DNA from: Corallococcus llansteffanensis | Lineage (GTDB): Bacteria > Myxococcota > Myxococcia > Myxococcales > Myxococcaceae | Reading direction: 5' to 3' | DNA length: 39,818 bases | NCBI RefSeq assembly: GCF_003612055.1 | Contig: NZ_RAWB01000017.1 | Location: forward strand, 1 to 39,818 | Shown here: positions 4,417-39,818 of the stretch, piece by piece | Layout: every line of letters starts with the position of its first letter | How positions within the stretch are numbered: the stretch's first letter is position 1 | Notes under the pieces: generated by a model | Told to the model about the DNA's origin: nothing | Database searches by the model: none | The model's input: the letters and a program-made list of their open reading frames with translations, nothing else | Position numbers and translations under genes: made by a program

Positions 4417-6541
<2,125 letters not shown>

Positions 6542-13287: not shown

Positions 13288-16200
13288 CTACCGACGGGCC
13301 TTGCGGGCCGCCGGTTTGCCCCGGGTGGTCTTCTTCGCCGCGGGCTTCTTCGCCGCGGACTTCTTCCCCGCCGCCTTCTTCGCGGAGGTCTTCCGGGCCG
13401 GCGCCTTGCGGGCGCTCCCCTTCTTCGCGGCGCTCTTCTTGCCCGCCGCCTTCTTCGCGGCCGGCTTGCCCCGGGTGCTCTTCTTCGCTGCGGCCTTCTT
13501 GCCCGCCGCCTTCTTCACGGGGGCCTTCTTCGCCGCTGGCTTCTTGCCCGCCGCCTTCTTCGCGGGGGCCTTCTTGCCCGCGGCCTTCGTCGCCGGAGCC
13601 TTCGCCACCGGAGCCTTCGCCGCCGGAGCCTTCCGTGCCGAGGCGGCCTTCTTCACGGACGCCGCCGGCGCCTCGCGGGTGTCGCCACCCTCCTTGGCCC
13701 GGTCGAACTCGCGCATCGCGTCGTCCACGAGGCCCATGCTCATGTACGCGACGCCCAGGTCGTGGTGATCCGCGGCGGACAGCCCTTCCTTGGTGCCCTC
13801 GCGCAGCTTGTTGAGCGCGTCCTCCACCACGGGGTCGGCGGCCTTGGGGGCTTCCCCGGCGGCCTCCGCCTCCATCTCGCCCTTCAGCTCCTGGCCCAGG
13901 TTGACGTCGTCCTTCGACGCCTTGGGCTCGGTGGCCACCTTCACATGGGCGCTCTCGGAGGCTTCGAGCGAGGAGGATTCGGACTCGGTGCTTCCCGGTA
14001 ACGGCGACGGCGTCTCGGACTCGGACATGGGGGGCTCCGGGGCGATGCGCTGGAGGTGATCCTGCAGCTTGACCGTGCGCTCCTGGAGCTCCGCCACCCG
14101 GGCCTGGTCCTTCGCCACCACGTCCGGCGGAGCACGGGCCACGAAGCTCGGATTGTCCAGCTTGCGCTGCACACTGGTGAGTTCCTGCTCGGCGCGGGCG
14201 ATCTCCTTCTTCAGGCGGTCGCGCTCCGCGTCCAGATCCACGAGGCCCGCCAGCGGGACGTAGATCTCCAGGTTTCCGCTGACGAACGCCGCCGCCTGCG
14301 GGGGCTTCGCGCCCGGCGGGCCCACGTGCACCTCCGACAGGCCAGCCAGCGGCATCAGGTACGCACGCCAGCGCTCCAACAGCTCGCGCGTCGTGGCGTC
14401 CGGGCTCTGCACCACCGCCTTCACCTTGGCGGACGGCGGCAGGTTGCTCTCACCGCGCAGCGTGCGCAGGCCCTCGATGGCCGCGATGACCGGCGCCATC
14501 TCCGCCTCCGCGGACGCATCCACGCGCGCCGCGTCCGGCTCCGGGTACGCCGCGATGCAGATGCTCTCCGTGGGCCGGGACATCGGCAGCTTCTGCCAGA
14601 TCTCCTCGGTGATGAACGGCATGAACGGGTGCATCAGCCGCAGGATGCGATCCAGGCAGTACACCAGCACCGCGCGCGTGGTGTCCTTCGCCTGCGCGTC
14701 CTCGCCGTACAGCGAGCCCTTCGCCAGCTCGATGTACCAGTCGCAGAACTCCGCCCACAGGAACTGGTACAGCGTGGAGGCGGCTTCCGCGAAGCCGAAC
14801 ACCTCCAGCGACGCGCGCGTCTCCTCGGTCGCCTTCTGCAGGCGGGAGAGGATCCACCGGTCCGCCAGCGTCAGCGTGCGGCCCTCCAACGGGGTCGCGT
14901 CCAGGCTGAAGTCGCCCATGTTCATCAGGGCGAAGCGGCTGGCGTTCCACAGCTTGTTGCAGAACGCCTTGTAGCCACCCAGGCGGTCCATCGACAGCTT
15001 GATGTCGCGGCCCTGCTGCGTGAGCGACGCGAGCGTGAAGCGCAGCGCGTCCGCGCCGAACGCGGGCATGCCCTGCGGGAAGCGGTTGCGCAGCGACGGC
15101 TGGAGCGCGTCCACCTTGGCGCCGAGGATGACGTCCAGGGGATCGATGACGTTCCCCTTCGTCTTGGACATCTTCTCGCCCTTCTCGTCGCGCACCATCG
15201 CGTGCAGGTACACGGTGCGGAAGGGCACATCGCCCATGAAGTGCAGGCCCATCATCATCATCCGGGCGACCCAGAAGAAGATGATGTCGTGGCCCGTCTC
15301 CATCACGGACGTCGGATAGAAGGTCTTCAGCTCCGGCGTCTGGTTCGGCCAGCCCAGCGTGGAGAACGGCCACAGCGCGGACGAGAACCACGTGTCCAGC
15401 ACGTCCGGGTCCTGCGTCAGGTCCTTGCCACCGCACTTCGGGCAGGACTCCGGCGTCGTGCGCGACACGATGACCGCCGAGGAGTCCAGCGACCGCTCCT
15501 CACCCGCGGGGCTGCACGCCTCGCAGTACCAGGCGGGAATCTGGTGGCCCCACCAGAGCTGGCGGCTCACGCACCAGTCGTGGATGTTGCGCATCCAGTG
15601 GAAGTACGTGTTGGTCCAGGACTCGGGGACGAACTTCGTGCGGCCCTGCTCCACCGCCTCGATGGCCGGCTTCGCCAGCGGTTCGATCTTGATAAACCAC
15701 TGCGGCGACAGGCGCGGCTCCACCACCGTGGCGCAGCGCTGGCAGGTGCCCACGCTCAGCTTGTGCGGCTCCTCCTTCTCCAGCAGCCCCTGCTCCGTCA
15801 GGTCCGCCAGCACCTGCTTGCGGGCCTCGAAGCGATCCAGGCCGGCGTACTTGCCGGTGTCCTTCGTCATCCGCGCCGCTTCGTCCAGGATGGACAGCAT
15901 CGGCAGCTTGTGGCGCAGGCCCGTCTGGTAGTCGTTGAAGTCGTGCGCGGGCGTGACCTTCACCACGCCGGTGCCGAACTCCATGTTCACGAGCTCGGCG
16001 TCCGCGATGATGGGGATGTCCCGGTCCGTCAGCGGCAGCCGCACCGACCGGCCCACCAGCCCCAGGTAGCGCGGGTCCTCCGGGTGGACGGCCACGGCGG
16101 TGTCGCCCAGCAGCGTCTCCGGACGCGTCGTCGCCACGGTGAGCGTGCGGTCGCTGTCCTTCACCGGGTAGCGGATGTGCCAGAGCGAGCCGTTCTTCTC

Positions 16201-16844: not shown

Positions 16845-18116
16845 TCAGTGCTGGGTCTCGCGGTCCTTGATGAGCCGCTCCAGCTCCTGCCGGATGATGG
16901 TCTCCGCCAGCTGCGGGACGACCTCCCAGGCAATCTTCTCGATGACCTCGCGGGAGGCCTTCGACAGGGCCTCGCGCAGCAGCGCCTCGCCGCCATCCGC
17001 GGGACGCGAGCGCGCGGGAGCGGCGGTCGGCGTGGGACCGCCGATGTCGATGGAGATCTCCTCCGTGTGCTCGGGCAGCGAGTCCTCGATGCGCAGGTTC
17101 TCCGTGCGGGCCTGCACGGCGGCCGGCGGAGGCGCGGACGGAGCGCCCAGGCCGAACGGATCCCGTGCGCGGGCCGCGGGCGGAACCGCCGCGGGCGGGT
17201 GCGAAGGCGGCAGCGGCGTGCCCCCGGCGGGAGGACGCGGGAAGCCGCCCGGGATGTTCGGAGCACCAGGACCCGGAGGACGCGCGGCCATGCCCGGAGG
17301 CGGCGGCACGCCTGGCCCCGGAGGACGCGCACCCGGAGGAACGGCGCCCGGAGGCGGACGCGCCATGCCCGGAGGCGGCGGCACGCCCGGACCCGGAGGA
17401 CGCGCGCCCGGCGGCGGCACGCCAGGACCGGGAGGACGCGCACCCGGCGGGACGGCGCCAGGAGGCGGCACGCCAGGACCGGGAGGACGCGCACCCGGCG
17501 GAACGGCGCCCGGAGGCGGACGCGCCATGCCCGGAGGCGGCGGCACGCCCGGACCCGGAGGACGCGCGCCCGGAGGCGGCACGCCTGGACCCGGAGGACG
17601 CGCACCCGGAGGCGGCGCGCCAGGACCCGGCGGACGGGCGCCCGGAGGCGCGGCGGCGGCAGGCGGCTGCGCGGCGGCCGGGGGCTGCGTGGGCGTGGCG
17701 GCCTGGGGGAACACGCGCGTCGCGGCGGACGCGGGCATGGTGTTCGACTTCTGGCCCACCAGCGCCTTCACCTTGTCGAGGAGGATCTGGCTCTCGAAGG
17801 GCTTGGTGATGTGGTCGTCCGCCCGGGCGGCCTTCGCGCGGTTCTCGTCGAACGCCTCGAAGGTGCCGGCCAGCAGCAGCACCGGGATGGCCTGGGTGGA
17901 GGGGTCGTTCTTGAGCGCCTCGCAGACCTCGTAGCCGCTCTTGCCCGGCATCATCACGTCGGCGAGCACCACGTCCGGACGCAGCTCGCGCGTGCGGGTG
18001 ATGGCGTCCAGCCCGTTGTCCACCGCGGTCACCTGGAAGTCTTCCGTCGCGAAGATCATCCCGATCACCTTGCGGATGGTGAGCGAGTCGTCGGCGATCA
18101 GTAGATTCTTGGGCAT
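16845..18116 (-). CDS. romR: Polarity response regulator RomR
   Basis: RomR sets front-rear polarity for gliding and type IV pilus motility in myxobacteria, working with MglA, MglB and RomX. The 423-residue protein has an N-terminal receiver with phospho-acceptor Asp53 (VLADVMMPGKSG) and the conserved KPFE lysine. A long Pro/Gly-rich linker runs from about residue 130 to 330, and a conserved helical C-terminus (EALSKASREVIEKIAWEVVP) contains the polar-targeting region. The size, Asp53 and architecture match M. xanthus RomR (420 residues, from memory). It lies downstream of a CheW-like gene and upstream of valS. Confidence 0.9.
   Translation of the reverse strand: MPKNLLIADDSLTIRKVIGMIFATEDFQVTAVDNGLDAITRTRELRPDVVLADVMMPGKSGYEVCEALKNDPSTQAIPVLLLAGTFEAFDENRAKAARADDHITKPFESQILLDKVKALVGQKSNTMPASAATRVFPQAATPTQPPAAAQPPAAAAPPGARPPGPGAPPPGARPPGPGVPPPGARPPGPGVPPPPGMARPPPGAVPPGARPPGPGVPPPGAVPPGARPPGPGVPPPGARPPGPGVPPPPGMARPPPGAVPPGARPPGPGVPPPPGMAARPPGPGAPNIPGGFPRPPAGGTPLPPSHPPAAVPPAARARDPFGLGAPSAPPPAAVQARTENLRIEDSLPEHTEEISIDIGGPTPTAAPARSRPADGGEALLREALSKASREVIEKIAWEVVPQLAETIIRQELERLIKDRETQH
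17240..17660 (-). repeat. Internal repeats coding the RomR Pro-rich linker
   Basis: Degenerate tandem units coding GARPPGPGVPPP and GMARPPPGAVPPG alternate about ten times. One longer block containing PPPPGMARPPPGAVPPG occurs twice (near 17340-17390 and 17500-17550), suggesting expansion by slippage or unequal recombination. Confidence 0.8.
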
Positions 18117-30909: not shown

Positions 30910-31008
30910 GGTAGGGCCTCCGGACCTGGTGGCCGGCCCGGTCTTCAAAACCGGTGAGGGGCGCTGAGAGGCGTCCCTGGCGAGTTCGATTCCCGTGCCC
31001 TACCGCCA
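30910..31008 (+). tRNA. selC: Selenocysteine tRNA, anticodon TCA
   Basis: A 99-base gene including encoded CCA. The 8-bp acceptor stem (GGTAGGGC with GCCCTACC) and discriminator G are followed by CCGGT-CTTCAAA-ACCGG, which places TCA (reads UGA) in the anticodon loop. The long variable arm (GGGGCGC with GCGTCCC) is typical of tRNA-Sec. In the T stem, A30983 faces C30993, an unusual mismatch, while the flanking pairs are normal. A tyrosine recombinase gene begins 112 bases downstream, so the 3' half is probably the island attachment site. Confidence 0.93.
30980..31008 (+). other. Presumed attachment site in the tRNA-Sec 3' end
   Basis: The T arm and acceptor 3' strand adjoin the integrase gene, as in selC-borne islands of enterobacteria. 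No second copy was seen by eye to the right end of the window, so the matching att site is either outside it or eroded. The exact core cannot be set. Confidence 0.5.
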
Positions 31009-31119: not shown

Positions 31120-32265
31120 ATGCCGAAGTGGAGCGGGAAGTGGATCGGGGGCCGCACGTACACGGCCACCGACGGAAGCACGCGCTGGATCATCCGCAAG
31201 ACCGTCGCCGGGGTCGCGTACAACGTCACGCTGGACGTACGGAGCGAGGTCGAGGCCCTGGCCGAGCTGGCGGCCTTCCGCCGCAACCCGGCCGCGTACC
31301 GGACCGCGAGCCAGGAACGCCAGGACGAGGCCCAGCAGGCCCAGGAGGACGCCGCGCAGGCGGTGTTCCTGGACGAGGATCGCGCCCGGCGGTTCCTCCA
31401 GCACCTGAAGGCCAGCGGCAGGTCTGACGAGTACCTGAAGAGCACGCGCAGCTACCTGGCCTCGTGGGCAACGGCGCTCGCAGACAAGGACCTGCGCGCG
31501 GTGACCGGACCGGCGTTGAAGAAGATCCTGGCCACCTGGGACACCGGCAAGAAGTGGCGCATCATCGTCTTCAAGTCCTTCACCTCGTTCCTTCAGGACG
31601 CGGGCGAGCTGGACCCGATGGTGAACCCCGGGCGCTTCCTGAAGGTCCCCCCTGCCCGCCGGAACCACGAACTCAAGGGCTACAGCATCGAGCACGTCCA
31701 GAAGCTCTACGCGGCCCTCGGCTCGCAGGCGATCCGCGACGTGCTGTGCCTCCAGGCCAAGACCGGGATGCACGGCACCGAGGTGGACCGGCTCGCGCGC
31801 GGTGACGGCAAGATCGCGGTTCTGAAGGACCAGGGCGAGATCGCCGCCACCGTCACGTTCAAGCACAAGACCGGGAAGCGGTTCACCGTGTCGCTCGATG
31901 CGCAGGGGCTCGCCGCCGCCCAGCGTCTCCAGACCCGGGGTTCAGCTCCAGATCGGCAGACCATCCGTGAGGCCGTGGAGCGCGTGTGCACACGCACGGG
32001 CTTGGAGTTCATCCACTTCGGCGCGATCCGGCACAGCTTCGCAACGTGGCTGGTCGAGCGAGGCAGCATCTACAATCCGCAGGGCGGCGGCCTCTCCCTG
32101 GAGGCCGTCGCCCAGGCGCTCAACCACAGCAGCACGCGGACCACGGCCCTCCACTACGTCAGCGCCACCGTACCGCCGATGTACGTCATCCCCATCCGCT
32201 TGGTGCACTCTGAGGACCCAGTACTGTTACGTACGACCCAAATCCAAGCGGGCCAGCCAAATTGA
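31120..32265 (+). CDS. Tyrosine recombinase / integrase
   Basis: A 381-residue phage-type integrase. The N-terminal part (to about residue 75) is Arg/Trp-rich and arm-binding-like, the core-binding domain follows to about 180, and the catalytic domain is C-terminal. Seen in the catalytic domain are the beta-hairpin lysine (FKHKTGKRF), the second Arg and His in GAIRHSFATWL, the third His in LNHSSTRTT, and the Tyr in ALHYV. The usual first Arg (TGxR) is TGMH here, and the His of HxxR is Gly, so two catalytic positions differ from the textbook set. GGGAG lies seven bases before the ATG. It is adjacent to tRNA-Sec. Confidence 0.9.
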   Translation: MPKWSGKWIGGRTYTATDGSTRWIIRKTVAGVAYNVTLDVRSEVEALAELAAFRRNPAAYRTASQERQDEAQQAQEDAAQAVFLDEDRARRFLQHLKASGRSDEYLKSTRSYLASWATALADKDLRAVTGPALKKILATWDTGKKWRIIVFKSFTSFLQDAGELDPMVNPGRFLKVPPARRNHELKGYSIEHVQKLYAALGSQAIRDVLCLQAKTGMHGTEVDRLARGDGKIAVLKDQGEIAATVTFKHKTGKRFTVSLDAQGLAAAQRLQTRGSAPDRQTIREAVERVCTRTGLEFIHFGAIRHSFATWLVERGSIYNPQGGGLSLEAVAQALNHSSTRTTALHYVSATVPPMYVIPIRLVHSEDPVLLRTTQIQAGQPN

Positions 32266-33492: not shown

Positions 33493-34011
33493 CTAGATGT
33501 CAATCCTGCGAATTTGCGTGCCGGGATCTGGCGGTGGCTCATTCGCACTTATGCTTGCCTTCGCAGACTCGGCTTTTCGCTGAAAATGTGCATGCTGTCG
33601 TACTGAACGACTCCGCCGTGCGCTGCCATGTCGCGACAAATCGCATGCTAGCAGCGCCTTGATGCTTGCCACCGTGATCATCACGGTCCTCCCGACCTTG
33701 GGAGCCCGCTCCAACCGGCTCTGCCTCAGGAGGTTGAAGACCTGTGCCCGCTTGCAGCCGAGCATCGCCGCTGCTTGCTCCAGCGGCACGGCCGTGGCGT
33801 TCTGTGTGGCCGATTGAGCGCGAAGCGCTCGAACCTCGCGCTTGATCTCGGCCAGTTCCTGGAGGATGGCGCATTCCAAGGGCGCGGGCTCATGGTCTTC
33901 AACGGGCACGGCAGGTCGAAAGACTGGAATGGGAATCGGAATGAAGTCCGACGGTGGTTCCGGCCGAGCAAGCAAGGAACCTGTACGGATGTAGCTGAAG
34001 TTCTCGATCAT
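33493..34011 (-). CDS. Helix-turn-helix protein, excisionase/AlpA-like
   Basis: A 172-residue protein. A central MerR/excisionase-type DNA-binding domain (PLEQAAAMLGCKRAQVFNLL then RLERAPKVGRTVMITVASIKALL, about residues 75-120) follows an acidic coiled region (ILQELAEIKREVRALRAQ). A Pro-rich N-terminus and a basic, disordered C-terminus flank it. In phage satellites such proteins act as transcription activators or recombination directionality factors. It lies between the integrase side and the primase/helicase gene, on the same strand as the latter, which fits a regulatory or excision role. There is no ribosome site at the ATG. Confidence 0.75.
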   Translation of the reverse strand: MIENFSYIRTGSLLARPEPPSDFIPIPIPVFRPAVPVEDHEPAPLECAILQELAEIKREVRALRAQSATQNATAVPLEQAAAMLGCKRAQVFNLLRQSRLERAPKVGRTVMITVASIKALLACDLSRHGSARRSRSVRQHAHFQRKAESAKASISANEPPPDPGTQIRRIDI

Positions 34012-34292: not shown

Positions 34293-36620
34293 TCAGCGGA
34301 CTGGTACCGGCAGCACCTGTGGAAGTGCCTCCAGAGGAAGTCGTAGCTCCTTCGGCGCCTCGGCCAGGTTTTCGTAATACCGCTCGGAGTTGGAGCGCCG
34401 GTAATTGATGCCATGGGTGCGCTCCATCCATTGCTTGAAGTCGCTGATTTCGTTGTCGCTCAGGTGCTCGGCGCGCGCTCGCTTCGAGACGATGCTGGCC
34501 GTGAGCTTCGCGCCCTGGGCGAAGACGAAGTTCTCGTCGAAGAAGTCCTGGAACTTCTGCTCGAATGAGGCAGCGCGCTCATCCTGGAGCGCGCGCGTGG
34601 TGTCCGTCAGTGGCAGGTCACCATGATGCGGACACAGGCGCTGGTAGATGAGCCTGCACATCCACAGGAAGCCCGGCAGTTCGACCATGAGCCGGGACCG
34701 CCACGTCGGGTCGTCCTTGCGCTTGCTCTCGGCGATCTCGATGTAGAGCATCCTGGAGCGGTCCGAGTTCTGGCTGCTGATCTCCGGCTTCGGGTTGCTG
34801 GCCACGAACAGCTTGGTCTTGAGCGGGTACGAGAACGGCGTCTGGCCCTTGTACTCGACCAGGACGTGATCGCCGCTCGTGAGGTTCCGGACGATCTCCA
34901 TCATGCCGAATCGGGGGTTCTTGCAGTCGGCGTAGACCGCGAGGCGCTTGCCGTAGAAGGCGCTGTAGACGAACTGGTTGCCCTTCAAGTGGCTGTTCGT
35001 GATGCCCGTGGCGGCCGGGCCGAACACCTCCATCAACACACCGAGCACCACGGACTTCCCATCCTGCCCCTCGCCCCGGAGCCACAGATACTGGCGTCCC
35101 ATGTTCTTCGGCTCGAAGCAGGACCAGACGTAGGCCATGAACGTCTCGCGGTCACTCAGCCGCTCCAGGAACTCACTCCATGCCGGGCAAGGGGCCTGGG
35201 TGGGCTGCCAGTCGAAGCGTTTGAAGCAGAGCCGCTGGTCCCCCTCGAAGCAGAATGGCTCCGGCTCAGCCACGAGGCGCGGGCATTCCTTCTTCCAGAG
35301 CAGGATCGCATCGCCGAGGAGTTTGTCCGGCGGGATCTGACCGAAGCGCGCCTTCAGGTGGTCATGAAGAACCTGTCGCAGGTGTGCGTCACCGTGGAGC
35401 AGGTTCACCTCCCGGCGGGCGTTCATCGAAAAGATGCGCTCGATGCCATCCTCGGCCCGCAGGAGCGCGAACCGCTTGTTCAGCACCGGGACGCAGTGCT
35501 CCACGAGCTTCGCGGTCCCGAAGTTCGTGTACGCGGCCTCGGCGGTGAGCACTTCGGCAGGAGATGCGTGGTTCGCGATCCCGTCCTCGTCGATACCGCT
35601 GAGCCTCTTCTTTGCCTCCCTCTGCCACCGGTTGAAGTCGTGCCTCTTGAGCAAGAGCCGCGCGAGCTTCGCAACCCGATCGAAGTCGAGCATCTGCTGC
35701 TTCCGGTTCATGTCGTCCCAATGCTGCTCCAGCCAGTCCAGGGCCTCGGCCACGTTGAATGGTCGAACCGAGTCCTGAAGAAGCTCCAGACGGCACTCCA
35801 GCTCCGGAGAGGACACGGCGAGGTAATCGTCGATCCCCAGCTTCTCCTCCCCCTTCTGGTGCGGCAGGTACGCGACTTCGACGGTGGCACTCTCTCCGGC
35901 AAGGAGCACACCGAGTTGGTGGAGGCCCGAGAGGACGTTCCCGTTGGTGTCCACGTCGGAGTCGAAGCAGATGATGAAGGTCTTGTCCGCGACGGCGAGC
36001 CGCTTCAGCCCCTCGGCGAGCACGCGCTCGTCCCTGCCCTCACACTTCGCGATCCAGCGCGCATTGCCATCGCCGCCGTTCTGCGCCCCTTGGATGGCAA
36101 CGGCCGCGAGCCCTGCCTGACGCAGCGCCAGTGCCTTGAACTCGCCCTCGCAGATCCAGATGCGCGTGGCCGAGCGCAGGAGAGGGTCATCCAGTCCGAG
36201 CGGGTAGTACACGAGCGCGCCCTTGCCGCACGGGCAAAGATACTTCGGGCCTTCGATGAACTGCGGCGGCGGGTCGCGCATGTACTCGACCGCGATGCTG
36301 TGCGGCACCTGGTCCTCGGGGACCGGTACCCGAGGATCATCAGGCCGCAGTTTCACGTACCCATCGCAGCCCGAGTACGGAATCACGAGGCCGGGGGCTG
36401 GGATGTACCGGTGGCCATCACGTCGGGCGAGAAGTTTAGCTCCCTCTTCCTGTGTCCAGTACGCGCGAATCCCGGCCTTGATCGCGGTTTCGACGGTGAT
36501 GCCACGCTCAGTCAGAGCCGCCTGCGATGCGGCAGAGAACTTCGACGTGTTCGTGTTGCTCCCCGTGTCGGTGTTGGTGTCACTGCTGCTGCATCCATTG
36601 AGGTTCGCCGAGTTGTCCAT
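34293..36620 (-). CDS. TOPRIM-like (DUF3854) and SF3/D5 primase-helicase
   Basis: A 775-residue replication protein of mobile elements. After a low-complexity N-terminus (Ser/Asp/Thr/Asn-rich), a DUF3854/TOPRIM-like module appears. It has a Cys pair (YLCPCG), Glu in WICEGEFKAL (about 158) and DSDVD in FIICFDSDVD (about 220). The C-terminal SF3 helicase has Walker A GEGQDGKSVVL (about 520), Walker B-like AVYADCKNPRFG, and sensor TKLFVASNPKPEIS. D5/P4-type enzymes prime and unwind plasmid or satellite DNA. The ATG at 36620 is chosen; a GTG at 36674 would extend it by 18 residues. There is no ribosome site. It is the main clue that the region is a P4-like satellite or integrated plasmid. Confidence 0.88.
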   Translation of the reverse strand: MDNSANLNGCSSSDTNTDTGSNTNTSKFSAASQAALTERGITVETAIKAGIRAYWTQEEGAKLLARRDGHRYIPAPGLVIPYSGCDGYVKLRPDDPRVPVPEDQVPHSIAVEYMRDPPPQFIEGPKYLCPCGKGALVYYPLGLDDPLLRSATRIWICEGEFKALALRQAGLAAVAIQGAQNGGDGNARWIAKCEGRDERVLAEGLKRLAVADKTFIICFDSDVDTNGNVLSGLHQLGVLLAGESATVEVAYLPHQKGEEKLGIDDYLAVSSPELECRLELLQDSVRPFNVAEALDWLEQHWDDMNRKQQMLDFDRVAKLARLLLKRHDFNRWQREAKKRLSGIDEDGIANHASPAEVLTAEAAYTNFGTAKLVEHCVPVLNKRFALLRAEDGIERIFSMNARREVNLLHGDAHLRQVLHDHLKARFGQIPPDKLLGDAILLWKKECPRLVAEPEPFCFEGDQRLCFKRFDWQPTQAPCPAWSEFLERLSDRETFMAYVWSCFEPKNMGRQYLWLRGEGQDGKSVVLGVLMEVFGPAATGITNSHLKGNQFVYSAFYGKRLAVYADCKNPRFGMMEIVRNLTSGDHVLVEYKGQTPFSYPLKTKLFVASNPKPEISSQNSDRSRMLYIEIAESKRKDDPTWRSRLMVELPGFLWMCRLIYQRLCPHHGDLPLTDTTRALQDERAASFEQKFQDFFDENFVFAQGAKLTASIVSKRARAEHLSDNEISDFKQWMERTHGINYRRSNSERYYENLAEAPKELRLPLEALPQVLPVPVR

Positions 36621-36626
36621 ACCGAA

Positions 36627-36720
36627 GAGATATCGAATTGAGTTGCTGGCCTTCTGCGCCCCGAGGGGCGGCACCGAGCACCACGCGCGGGAAGGTGTTG
36701 ATATGGATGTATCGAATTCA
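36627..36720 (-). repeat. Two operator-like direct repeats upstream of the primase gene
   Basis: GAGATATCGAATTGA (36627-36641) and GATGTATCGAATTCA (36706-36720) agree at 12 of 15 positions, sharing TATCGAATT, and lie 79 bases apart. They flank the primase start region and may be sites for an element regulator. The copy near the ATG could also block initiation. Confidence 0.35.
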
Positions 36721-36884
36721 GGCTTCAGACCTCCCCCGTGGTGGGCAAGGGCGCATGTAGGCCCCTGAGCGCATCCACGCGGTGAGTGCGCATGAGGTAC
36801 ACGGCTCAGTTGTCCAACCGCGCGTTCCTGAACCGTGGACGGCCATGGGATTCGCGGCGTACACCGGACGGCAACCTTCCGTGT

Positions 36885-37367
36885 ATGAGCCGAGGCACCC
36901 GCTGGAGCACGGAGTACCTGGACGCGATGATCGCGGCCTGGGAGAAGTCCGGGCTGACCTCGGAGCAGTTCACGGCCACGGCCGCGCCAGGGCTGCCTGC
37001 GCGTACCCTACGGCTGCACCGCCAGCGAAAAGAGAAGGAGATCCACGCAGAGCTTCAGCGGCTTCGGGATGAAAACGCGACGCTCCGGTCGATGCTCGAA
37101 AGGAGCGCGTTGGTCCCTGGTGGTTGCCGGGCGGCAACCTTCAGCGACCCCAACGGCCACGGCATTGGAGATCGCCATGTGGCAAACGGAACCGAAGCCC
37201 CTTCGCCGACCGCGACCGGGCCGCCAGCATTGGAGCCGGTACAGCCGCGCGTGGTGCCGCAGGACCAGGTTGCCGGACCCTCCCCCGGTGATCACGATGG
37301 TCGTGTGCTCGTAGGGGAAAACACCGAGCCGGTGCCCCCGAAGCGACCGACGTTCTCCTGGGATTGA
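36885..37367 (+). CDS. Hypothetical protein with transposase-like HTH and coiled coil
   Basis: A 160-residue frame from the ATG at 36885. The first half (RWSTEYLDAMIAAWEKSGLT onward, with PARTLRLHRQRKEKEIHAEL and a heptad-like ELQRLRDENATLRSMLERS) resembles the helix-turn-helix and leucine-zipper start of IS66/IS3-type transposase small subunits. The second half is Pro/Gly-rich and unlike a folded domain, so a frame slip near 37110 is possible. The region extends upstream in frame to 36786. It lies between the primase gene and a broken repressor gene. A remnant is as likely as a working gene. Confidence 0.45.
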   Translation: MSRGTRWSTEYLDAMIAAWEKSGLTSEQFTATAAPGLPARTLRLHRQRKEKEIHAELQRLRDENATLRSMLERSALVPGGCRAATFSDPNGHGIGDRHVANGTEAPSPTATGPPALEPVQPRVVPQDQVAGPSPGDHDGRVLVGENTEPVPPKRPTFSWD

Positions 37368-37402
37368 TGGCCCCGCGCCTGCTGGCCAATGTCGGGCGCC
37401 AT

Positions 37403-37695
37403 CTACCGCTGGTCTTGGTCCGCGAGCGCTTTCAAGAGCTTCTTGATCTCGGCCGAGGACATCGTGCGGATGCGGTCCACGAGGCGTTGCCGCTCGTCAT
37501 CCTCGGGGAACGTCAGGAGGTCCAGCGGCAACACTCCCAGGTGGTCCGCCAGCACCTTCAACGTGCGCAGGGTCGGACGGGCCAGCCCCTTCTCGATGTC
37601 AGAGAGGTACCCCTTCGAGCCGAGATCGCTCTCGTAGGCGAGCTTTCCATCGTGAGCCGGGACTCCTTACGGAGCTGGCGGATGCGCGCGCCCAC
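37403..37695 (-). pseudogene. XRE-family repressor broken by a one-base deletion
   Basis: Translated on the minus strand, one frame gives GARIRQLRKESRLTM from a possible GTG at 37695. The next frame continues GKLAYESDLGSKGYLSDIEK and on to LARPTLRTLKVLADHLGVLPLDLL, ending ADQDQR at the TAG at 37403-37405. Together they make a normal HTH_3 domain with a helical C-terminus. The frames meet at 37644-37651, where ATGGAAAGCTC would read through if it were ATGGAGAAGCTC, so one G is missing. Neither frame alone encodes a full domain: the second has no start codon after an upstream TAA. A sequencing error is the alternative. It is divergent from the repeat-protein gene. Confidence 0.8.
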
Positions 37696-37852
37696 GGTCT
37701 TCGCGAGCGGCTCCGGGGTGCGGCGGGGTATCCGGCTCGACTACGACCTAGGCTCCGTTACAGGGGACGACGCTGGTAGACGCGGGCGTGGAACTTCATG
37801 TGGTGGTATCCGAGACTGCTGCTTAAATTTTGACTCGAAAGTGAGGAACTTG

Positions 37853-38131
37853 ATGCGGAAACTCTACCCCACAGTGCACAACAGCCATGAAACCTACGGA
37901 CTGCCCGCCTACGAGATGCAGGGCAGTAGCTTGTACCCCACGGTGCACAACACCCGGGACTCCTATGGGCTCCCCGTCTACGAGATCCAGGGCGATAACA
38001 TCTACCCCACGGTGCACAACACCCGGGACTCCTATGGGCTCCCCGTCTACGAGATCCAGGGCGATAACATCTACCCCACGGTGCACAATCGCCGGAACTC
38101 CTATGGGCTCCCCGTCTACGAGATTCGCTAG
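37853..38131 (+). CDS. Protein of four 23-residue YPTVHN/YGLPVYEI repeats
   Basis: A 92-residue protein after the short start MRK. The repeat is [LI]YPTVHN, three variable residues, [ST]YGLP[VA]YE[IM]QG, and two or three small polar residues. It occurs three full times plus a shortened fourth copy ending in IR. Alternating hydrophobic residues predict two short strands per unit, so a four-unit closed beta fold (beta-flower or propeller-like) is plausible. There is no signal, membrane segment or cysteine. GAGG six bases before the ATG is an excellent ribosome site, supporting expression. An in-frame extension to 37364 runs antisense through the broken repressor and is rejected. No function known. 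Confidence 0.75.
   Translation: MRKLYPTVHNSHETYGLPAYEMQGSSLYPTVHNTRDSYGLPVYEIQGDNIYPTVHNTRDSYGLPVYEIQGDNIYPTVHNRRNSYGLPVYEIR
37862..38131 (+). repeat. 69-bp tandem repeat, four copies
   Basis: Copies run 37862-37930, 37931-37999, 38000-38068 and 38069-38131 (shortened). Copies 2 and 3 differ only in their first codon (TTG or ATC). Copy 4 differs from them at about ten positions and lacks the end, and copy 1 is the most diverged. This points to recent internal duplication of a unit in an older array. Confidence 0.9.
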
Positions 38132-38474
38132 GAGCTAGATCTTCAATCTCCTTCAGGATTGTTGCCGAAGGTCACCAAGGTTGGCGTCCTGGGAGGCATC
38201 TCGGCGATGCAGGGCAATTCCTTCGAGGACTTACCTGAAGGCGATTGGGGGTAGGACTCCAGGCAAAGGGCAAAGGCAGAACGCGAGCGCCGAGCGGGCG
38301 AGCCACCATACCCACTCGGCCGAGTCCTGTGGTCTCTTGTAATACTCCATAGGTTTATGAATAGTAGACCTTGGACCGCGAGAGCCACCGGCTCCCACAG
38401 CCGAAGCCCCACCAGGGAGCCGGAAGGCCCGAGCCAGCGCCCGCCGCGCGTCCCTTCCCACCTGGAGGCCGCAC
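38132..38474. other. Intergenic region upstream of the kinase gene
   Basis: About 340 bases without a credible gene. A short frame after the repeat gene reads VTKVGVLGGISAMQGNSFED and ends in a TAG near 38255; it lacks a good start and is probably a remnant. A perfect 12-bp palindrome ACTCGGCCGAGT (38314-38325) lies just upstream of an AT-rich stretch with a possible promoter (38337-38365). Confidence 0.5.
38337..38365 (+). promoter_or_regulatory. Possible promoter of the kinase gene
   Basis: TTGTAA (38337-38342), 17 bases, AATAGT (38360-38365); each hexamer matches 4 of 6 consensus positions. It stands in the only AT-rich stretch before the kinase gene, with a 12-bp palindrome just upstream that could be an operator. 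It would give a leader of about 100 bases. Confidence 0.3.
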
Positions 38475-39641
38475 ATGACCGATGACAGCACGCCGACCGA
38501 CGAAACGCGGATCGAGGACGCGACGCCGGAGAACAGTTCCGACCTGGAGAGCGCCCGCCCCCGGCTCCGGTTCACCATCGAAACCACCACGTACGAGGCC
38601 ATCCGCACGCTAGAGCGGCGGGGTAACGGCGAGGTGGTGCTCTTGGCCGAGCGTCACCTTCCCCATGGACTCGCCGGGCACGTCACCATCAAGCGCCTGC
38701 GCAATCCCGTCACTTTCGAGCGCTGCCAGCGGCTGATCGAGGAGGTCCAGCTCGCCTTCCGCCTCCACCACCCGGCCATCGCCCAGGTTCATCACCTGAA
38801 AATCTACGCCGACCGGCCGCACGTCATCGCGGAGTACGTGGACGGCCCCACGCTGGACACCATCATCAGCCTCGCCACCATGCGCGAGAAGCCGCTCTCC
38901 GCGCCTTTCGCCCTCTACATCGCCGCCGAGGTGGCCGACGCCCTCCACCACGCGCACACGCTAAGAGATTCGGAGAACCGGCCGCTGGGCATCATCCACC
39001 GCGACGTGGCGCCCCGGAACATCCGCGTGGCCCGGAGCGGCGAGGTGAAGGTGACAGACTTCGGCGCCACCTACTCGCTCATGGTGGGCCGGGAGGAGAC
39101 GCCGGGCCTGCTGCTCAAAGGCGACGTGGCGTACGCCTCGCCCGAGTACCTGCACCGCAAGCCCATGGATGGCCGATCCGATATCTTCTCGCTGGGCCTC
39201 GTCCTCATGGAGATGCTGACGTGCAAGCACCTCTTCGACGTGGAGGACGAAAAGGCCCCTAACGCCACCATGGACGTGAAGACGGAGGAGACGCCCTCGG
39301 TGCCCCTCACGCAGATGATCGCGCTCGTCAACCGCTACCGCCCCGAAGACGTGGAGAACGCGATGGCGGGCCTGCCGGACATGCTCAAGGCCATCGTCCA
39401 CAATGCCCTCCAGCGCAAGCTCTCCGAGCGCTACGCCACTGCCGCCGAGATGCGCGATGCGCTGCGGGCGGCGCTCGCGGCGGAGTCACAGCCCTTCGGC
39501 CGGAAGGAGGCGAGCGAGGAGCTGGCGCGGCTGCTGTCGGAGGCGTCCGTCCTGCGCGACCGGGTGGAGCTGGACGAAGAAGGCATCTTCCCCGAGGGCC
39601 TGGACGCCGACGAGGCGACGCCCGCACCGAACGAAGAGTGA
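38475..39641 (+). CDS. Serine/threonine protein kinase family protein
   Basis: A 388-residue cytoplasmic eukaryotic-like kinase. After a disordered acidic N-terminus, the domain spans about residues 40-340. It has the beta-3 lysine in VTIKRLR (Lys73), the catalytic loop HRDVAPRN (175-182), DFG (195-197), and YASPEYLHRKPMDGRSDIFSLG as the activation-segment end. The glycine loop is degenerate (RRGNGEVV). HRDVAPRN has Ala where Ser/Thr kinases usually have Lys, a form also seen in tyrosine kinases (HRDLAARN) and some myxobacterial Pkn proteins. There is no membrane segment or sensor. GGAGG precedes the ATG. The C-terminus is acidic and helical. Confidence 0.9.
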   Translation: MTDDSTPTDETRIEDATPENSSDLESARPRLRFTIETTTYEAIRTLERRGNGEVVLLAERHLPHGLAGHVTIKRLRNPVTFERCQRLIEEVQLAFRLHHPAIAQVHHLKIYADRPHVIAEYVDGPTLDTIISLATMREKPLSAPFALYIAAEVADALHHAHTLRDSENRPLGIIHRDVAPRNIRVARSGEVKVTDFGATYSLMVGREETPGLLLKGDVAYASPEYLHRKPMDGRSDIFSLGLVLMEMLTCKHLFDVEDEKAPNATMDVKTEETPSVPLTQMIALVNRYRPEDVENAMAGLPDMLKAIVHNALQRKLSERYATAAEMRDALRAALAAESQPFGRKEASEELARLLSEASVLRDRVELDEEGIFPEGLDADEATPAPNEE

Positions 39642-39671
39642 GAACGGGCGGCCGAGCACTCCTGGAAGCAA

Positions 39672-39694
39672 GCGGGCCCCAGGTGTGGGCCCGC
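39672..39694. terminator. Strong hairpin after the kinase gene
   Basis: GCGGGCCC (39672-39679) pairs with GGGCCCGC (39687-39694) around a 7-nt loop, followed on the plus strand by GTCGTTT. It lies between two convergent stop codons (39641 and 39703), so it probably ends both transcripts. Confidence 0.75.
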
Positions 39695-39700
39695 GTCGTT

Positions 39701-39818
39701 TCAGCGCAACAACACCTGGGCCACCTTCACGAGGGCATCGAGTTGGTCCTCGTCCATCTTGCGCGCGAGGCCGGTGAGCTGGCGCAGCTTGGGCGCCCCG
39801 CCCTGCCCTCGCTCCCCC
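39701..39818 (-). CDS. C-terminus of an unidentified gene, possibly HTH regulator
   Basis: Only the last 38 codons are in the window, running off the right edge. The end reads KLRQLTGLARKMDEDQLDAL followed by VKVAQVLLR and a TGA at 39701-39703. The Leu-rich amphipathic helix resembles the C-terminal dimerisation helix of XRE-type regulators in myxobacteria. That is a guess from composition alone. It shares the strong terminator hairpin with the kinase gene. Confidence 0.55.
   Translation of the reverse strand, partial: GERGQGGAPKLRQLTGLARKMDEDQLDALVKVAQVLLR

What the first reader, a model, noticed from the sequence alone, without database searches (positions are those of the whole stretch)
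37853..38131. Small protein of four near-identical 23-residue repeats
Regular YPTVHN/YGLPVYEI units, an excellent ribosome site, and two copies differing in one codon. The predicted strand-pair unit repeated four times suggests a closed small beta fold. I know no described family with this repeat, and it sits in an accessory region beside a broken repressor, so it is the best candidate for an undescribed system here.
Basis: partly seen in the sequence, partly recalled or inferred. Interest (0 to 1): 0.65.

Follow-up and report, generated by a model that had tools for sequence, protein, structure and literature searches.

The report
Mobile four-repeat small protein, function unknown
A 92-residue protein made of exactly four copies of a 23-residue unit is a real, selectively conserved and apparently undescribed gene family that travels on plasmids, transposons, phages and integrated islands in unrelated bacteria, often beside anti-phage or toxin-antitoxin genes, although its fold and function are not yet shown.

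Summary
Window 37853-38131 encodes 92 residues, exactly 4 x 23, and units 2 and 3 are identical over all 69 nt. The gene is real. Homologues occur on small E. coli and Enterobacter plasmids, in Aeromonas, Burkholderia, Polaromonas, a Cupriavidus transposon, a Chromatiales MAG, actinobacterial MAGs and a phage. All have four units, and dN/dS is about 0.05 in the best pair. No Pfam, NCBIfam, PHROGs, PADLOC or PDB entry describes it. In the window it lies in an exchangeable cargo slot of an element integrated in the tRNA-Sec gene. A same-genus genome has nearly identical flanks there but a different gene. At other loci the neighbours include a CBASS SAVED nuclease, an FRG gene, YhcG plus PDC-S53, HigBA and HicAB. 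The closed beta fold is plausible but unproven: two AlphaFold2 runs gave pLDDT 45 and 37, though both placed the same hairpins. The closest published idea, the 4-fold beta-flower (PF21784), fails every sequence test made here. Best explanation: a solo, cytosolic, fourfold beta-ring protein carried as conflict (defence or toxin-antitoxin) cargo. The mobile-cargo part is shown; the conflict role and the ring are inferred.

The parts
37853..38131 (+). four-unit repeat protein gene, 92 aa (units start at Y codons, 69-nt period)
   Evidence: homologues; purifying selection
37843..37849 (+). probable ribosome-binding site (GAGGAAC) upstream of ATG 37853
   Evidence: sequence
37426..38254 (.). exchangeable cargo segment: in same-genus genome G020 this stretch is replaced by 1326 bp with a different 324-aa ORF between flanks 94-95% identical
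   Evidence: window 36282-37425 = L050 128-1284; window 38255-39815 = L050 2611-4177
37403..37695 (-). probable frameshifted XRE-type regulator (two ORFs in different frames); its 3' tip straddles the cargo boundary
   Evidence: by eye; the 52-aa piece 37403-37561 has no Pfam hit
30910..31008 (+). tRNA-Sec (selC), attachment site (attL side); its 3' 69 nt recur at the right end on own contig C509:7636-7704
31120..32265 (+). tyrosine recombinase (integrase) of the element
   Evidence: Pfam PF00589
32577..33362 (+). T5orf172 (GIY-YIG-like) protein, match to PADLOC candidate PDC-S57
33493..34011 (-). small helix-turn-helix protein, excisionase-like (below Pfam cut-off)
   Evidence: HTH_17 E 1e-4
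34293..36674 (-). P4-family plasmid/phage primase
   Evidence: TIGR01613 (below its cut-off) and DUF3854/DUF5906
38475..39641 (+). Ser/Thr protein kinase, conserved right flank of the cargo slot
   Evidence: PF00069; same place in G020

Best explanation
The gene encodes a small soluble protein of four equivalent 23-residue beta-hairpin units (strand LPxYEI, tight turn RGxx, strand IYxTV, then a 7-9 residue loop) that most likely close into one fourfold beta ring with four equivalent sites. These sites would be lined by the conserved Tyr, Thr, His/Asn, Pro, Tyr/Phe and Glu/Asp of each unit. It is a stand-alone cargo gene of mobile elements. It most likely acts in conflicts involving those elements, as a small anti-phage or anti-competitor protein or as an antidote or modulator of a neighbouring toxin or defence nuclease, by binding one ligand through the fourfold face. 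Shown: coding, conserved, four units, mobile, cargo position. Inferred: ring closure, ligand binding, conflict role.
For: Coding and selection: homologues from different classes and phyla keep the protein while synonymous sites saturate. E. coli versus Enterobacter plasmids: pS 0.65, pN 0.07, dN/dS 0.05; Chromatiales versus actinobacterial MAG 0.15. Copy number: the homologues aligned all have four units although the units are homogenised (within-protein unit identity 0.42-0.95), so extra copies should arise easily. Secondary structure: two AF2 runs on different query proteins put the strands at the same unit positions. Mobility: all 58 E. coli places are on plasmids, none on chromosomes; one identical copy recurs in Cupriavidus species and a Rhodocyclaceae MAG beside genes that read by eye as TniQ and a TnsC-like ATPase; it lies between tail genes and integrase in a phage contig; in the window it lies in a cargo slot of a selC element. 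Conflict neighbours: SAVED-PDDEXK E 3e-204 (L013), FRG/PDC-S15 E 2e-65 (L011), YhcG/PDC-S02 E 7e-129 and PDC-S53 1308 bits (L019), HigBA (L006, L007, L009), HicAB (L017). The window's own element also carries T5orf172/PDC-S57 and, further right, an Mrr-type nuclease and Imm11.
Against: No fold was obtained with confidence (pLDDT 45 and 37). No single partner gene is constant across loci, so guilt by association is loose. No background rate of such neighbours on mobile elements was measured. In L012, L034/L036 and G1328 the neighbours are transposases or ordinary genes. The Cupriavidus transposon copy has a stop in unit 2. The window/G034 pair is under weaker constraint (dN/dS 0.65).
Confidence: 0.45

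Rival explanations
1. It is a divergent member of the beta-flower/Tubby-like clan (CL0395): a fourfold beta-flower that binds lipid or another hydrophobic ligand in its channel.
For: Same size class, four petals each made of a hairpin, hairpins with one short and one long turn, a [DNEQ]xxG-like DxYG, and mostly bacterial, as described in PMC10584680. Known fourfold beta-flowers also sit on small plasmids, one after MqsA and a SecB-like gene and before a CAP12/Pycsar TIR gene. hhalign picks the expected register.
Against: PF21784 does not reach E 10 on the proteins scanned with Pfam. hhalign probability is 0.1-0.6%, P 0.10-0.44. HMM scores are no better than unit-shuffled controls. Units are 23 not about 16-20 aa, and the proline-rich tail of many PF21784 members is absent.
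Confidence: 0.25
2. It is an antitoxin, immunity protein or accessory of the adjacent toxin-antitoxin module (HigBA, HicAB).
For: HigA lies on all E. coli and Enterobacter plasmids viewed, and HicA-HicB lie just upstream of it, one gene away, in Polaromonas.
Against: HigBA is on the opposite strand with two other genes between, and most other loci have no TA pair. The third gene of the Polaromonas locus could not be confirmed as a SecB-like chaperone.
Confidence: 0.15
3. It is a stability, replication or transfer helper of mobile elements with no defence role.
For: Found on mobilisable ColE1-like plasmids, transposons, a phage and a selC element.
Against: Absent from nearly all genomes searched (14 of 5426 E. 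coli genomes have it). It sits in the exchangeable cargo slot, not the core, of the window's element.
Confidence: 0.2
4. It is a chance open frame in low-complexity tandem DNA, or a gene on the other strand.
For: In GC-rich tandem repeats several frames stay open, including antisense; RefSeq annotates the antisense ORF on one E. coli plasmid.
Against: dN/dS 0.05-0.22 in the sense frame in the informative pairs; alternative frames are interrupted in Enterobacter, Aeromonas and Polaromonas.
Confidence: 0.03

Closest known systems
4-fold beta-flower protein (Pfam PF21784, clan CL0395)
   Same: about 80-100 residues in the repeat part, four hairpin petals, one short and one long turn, Gly-rich turns, found as an orphan gene on small plasmids beside TA and TIR genes
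   Different: no detectable sequence relation; 23-residue units nearly identical to each other; no proline-rich tail; fold not established here
Solo defence-island or mobile-element cargo genes (for example PADLOC PDC-S candidates)
   Same: single small gene in exchangeable cargo slots beside SAVED, FRG and YhcG/PDC-S53 genes
   Different: matches no PADLOC model; no enzymatic domain; no phenotype known
Short TIGR02808 / DUF2374 (PF09574)
   Same: the Polaromonas protein alone scores above the Pfam cut-off by summing four 14-residue matches
   Different: below the NCBIfam cut-off (33 versus 40); profile length 42 with only about 14 positions matched; no other homologue scanned matches it; judged spurious

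Membership tests
4-fold beta-flower PF21784 | match to the Pfam profile at its cut-off | tested here: not met
   no PF21784 hit at E 10 for the homologues scanned; own genome has no PF21784 match
4-fold beta-flower PF21784 | profile-profile similarity | tested here: not met
   hhalign probability 0.1%; unit level P 0.10
4-fold beta-flower PF21784 | fourfold beta-hairpin barrel with hydrophobic channel | tested here: inconclusive
   AF2 pLDDT 44.8 and 36.7, hairpins only
4-fold beta-flower PF21784 | [DNEQ]xxG at the hairpin tip | tested here: inconclusive
   DSYG/ETYG/NSYG in window units; not in all homologues (alignments)
Anti-phage defence gene | match to a known or candidate defence model | tested here: not met
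   PADLOC none
Anti-phage defence gene | recurrent defence neighbourhood | tested here: inconclusive
   3 independent loci directly adjacent to strong PADLOC hits (L011, L013, L019) plus TA pairs (L006, L017), no background rate
Anti-phage defence gene | protects cells from phage | not testable with these tools
   needs a plaque assay
Toxin-antitoxin-chaperone (TAC) component | adjacent toxin, antitoxin and SecB-like chaperone | tested here: not met
   Polaromonas: HicA and HicB met, third gene has no SecB match
Solved repeat folds in PDB | sequence match to a chain | tested here: not met
   none; best profile hit E 0.92 to 1jmx

The most novel reading that the evidence does not exclude
A new protein family with a previously unseen closed fourfold beta-ring of nearly perfect 23-residue units that acts by itself as a broad-range, horizontally spread conflict gene (anti-phage or anti-toxin) in Gram-negative and Gram-positive bacteria.
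Probability: 0.22. Interest if true: 0.75.

Novelty: new variant of a known kind. Interest (0 to 1): 0.5.

Why it matters
It is a compact, near-perfectly symmetric natural repeat protein that no family library used here covers, and it is annotated under the match in few of the plasmid records that carry it. Its spread across phyla on plasmids, transposons, islands and a phage, in cargo slots and often next to nucleases and toxins, marks it as a candidate for a very small single-gene conflict system. Because it occurs on 4-5 kb E. coli plasmids, the question can be tested in standard K-12 strains.

Tried and rejected
Direct membership in any Pfam, NCBIfam, PHROGs or PADLOC family: only sub-threshold or spurious repeat-sum hits. 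PDB sequence match: none. AlphaFold2 with the window protein first and with the Polaromonas protein first: unusable confidence, so no fold search was run. Beta-flower homology by hhalign, HMM and petal-level profiles with shuffled controls: not significant. SecB-like identity of the Polaromonas third gene: not confirmed. Direct single-protein scan of genome contigs and several viral scans: nothing. The low-scoring hits in G053-G055 and G062 were not pursued; the G062 stretch reads as a different repeat.

Full report
Observation. Window 37853-38131 (+) encodes a 92-residue protein, exactly four units of 23 residues: MRKLYPTVHNSHETYGLPAYEMQ / GSSLYPTVHNTRDSYGLPVYEIQ / GDNIYPTVHNTRDSYGLPVYEIQ / GDNIYPTVHNRRNSYGLPVYEIR. 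TRF finds a 69-nt period with score 384. Counted from YPTV, units 2 and 3 are identical over 69 nt and unit 1 is the most divergent. A plausible ribosome site (GTGAGGAAC) precedes the ATG.

Is it a gene? Yes. The own genome has one copy. In its family only one other of 96 genomes has a clear copy (G034, 50% identity); three further hits at E 0.02-0.08 were not pursued. Outside it, tblastn finds the gene on small E. coli and Enterobacter plasmids and on a Cupriavidus campinensis megaplasmid. Profile scans find it in Aeromonas veronii, Burkholderia sp., Cupriavidus spp., a Rhodocyclaceae MAG, Polaromonas, a Chromatiales MAG, a MAG labelled Mycobacterium, an IMG/VR phage contig, one more genome from the family-level search around Polaromonas and, more distantly, a genome from the phylum of the MAG labelled Mycobacterium. 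Frequency is low: 14 of 5426 E. coli genomes, all on plasmids; 2 of 400, 1 of 394 and 2 of 396 genomes in three broad searches. Synonymous sites are saturated while the protein is kept: E. coli/Enterobacter pS 0.65, pN 0.07, dN/dS 0.05; other informative pairs 0.15-0.22. Alternative frames are open in some GC-rich copies but broken in others. The window/G034 pair (0.65) is the exception.

Anatomy. Across 39 units the constant positions are Y1, [PR]2, T3, V4, [HN]6, G12, [LM]13, P14, [YF]16, [ED]17, [IL]18, followed by a mostly Arg/Gln-Gly turn. Two sub-types exist: YPTVHN..DSYGLPxYEIRG (window, G034, Chromatiales, actinobacterial MAG, phage) and YRTVSHVDGW.GLPQYEIRG (plasmids, Aeromonas, Burkholderiales). 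The aligned homologues all have four units. Units within one protein are often more alike than units of different proteins, a sign of repeated homogenisation, so a fixed number of four suggests that four are needed, as in a closed ring. That is inference. AlphaFold2 runs on alignments of 7 and 8 sequences gave pLDDT 44.8 and 36.7. Both draw hairpins with strands at about unit positions 13-18 and 22-4 of the next unit. No usable tertiary fold was obtained.

Where it sits. The window carries tRNA-Sec at 30910-31008, an integrase at 31120-32265, a T5orf172 protein, an excisionase-like HTH protein and a P4-family primase. The same-genus genome G020 has the same DNA on both sides (94-95% identity). 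But window 37426-38254, with the repeat gene and the damaged regulator, is replaced there by 1326 bp encoding an unrelated 324-aa protein. The 3' 69 nt of tRNA-Sec recur at the right end of this element in G020 and on contig C509 of the window's own genome, and no complete tRNA is found at the G020 site. C509 continues the element where the window stops. The repeat gene is therefore exchangeable cargo of a selC-integrated element of roughly 16.5 kb (inferred from two contigs). C509 adds a second kinase, an Mrr-type nuclease and an Imm11 protein.

Neighbours of homologues. Cupriavidus/Rhodocyclaceae transposon: SAVED-PDDEXK CBASS effector directly upstream (E 3e-204), with genes read by eye as TniQ and a TnsC-like ATPase downstream; this copy has a TGA in unit 2. 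Aeromonas: FRG-domain gene, PDC-S15. MAG L019: YhcG/DUF1016 (PDC-S02) on one side and a 913-aa helicase (PDC-S53, 1308 bits) on the other. E. coli plasmids: HigBA; the Enterobacter plasmid annotation shows HigA only. Polaromonas: HicA, HicB and an unidentified third gene. Phage L020: between tail genes and integrase. Burkholderia OK233 and G261 lie among transposases (transposases read by eye). No partner is constant. The pattern is that of stand-alone mobile cargo in conflict-gene surroundings, but no background rate was measured.

Comparison. The only published fold idea that fits is the beta-flower (PMC10584680, read), which includes fourfold forms (PF21784). PF21784 does not hit any homologue scanned with Pfam, hhalign gives 0.1%, and HMM scores do not exceed unit-shuffled controls. 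So it is not filed as a beta-flower. It may still work like one. In passing, a true PF21784-type gene on an Acinetobacter plasmid follows MqsA and a SecB-like gene and precedes a CAP12/Pycsar TIR gene, which resembles the surroundings of the present family.

Verdict. A real, rare, mobile, apparently undescribed four-repeat family; conflict-related cargo is the best guess. The ring fold and the function remain to be shown.

Noticed in passing
L058 1024-2819 (NZ_CP031975.1, Acinetobacter haemolyticus plasmid): A 4-fold beta-flower gene (PF21784 type) lies 10 nt after a SecB-like gene and MqsA antitoxin and before a CAP12/Pycsar TIR effector (PDC-S35): possible TAC-plus-beta-flower module.
   Followed up: partly
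L056 1229-1863 and L059 329-963 (Acinetobacter plasmids): Beta-flower genes follow, 2 nt apart, a conserved 89-aa protein (WP_033845668 / 'protein L'): candidate two-gene operon.
   Followed up: no
L013-L016 around 6001-6270 (L016 2391-2660): Identical transposon copies in Cupriavidus species and a Rhodocyclaceae MAG carry the repeat gene with a TGA in unit 2 beside a SAVED-PDDEXK gene; the CBASS cyclase was not seen and a probable transposase lies upstream.
   Followed up: partly
L037 4763-5485 (G034): A second, unrelated repeat protein (units like WAESPVMKMAQRMGESPGMKLARQWDEYSLSKVAR) lies about 0.6 kb upstream of the G034 copy.
   Followed up: no
L050 1466-2440 (G020): A 324-aa protein with no Pfam, NCBIfam or PADLOC match occupies the same cargo slot as the repeat gene in a same-genus genome: another candidate cargo gene.
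   Followed up: partly
L080 3801-5645 (own genome contig C509): A 614-aa protein without Pfam or PADLOC match sits beside an Mrr-type nuclease in the right part of the same selC element.
   Followed up: partly
window 13330-13633 and 17272-17689: Long GC-rich tandem arrays (15/45-nt and 51/162-nt periods) elsewhere in the window.
   Followed up: no
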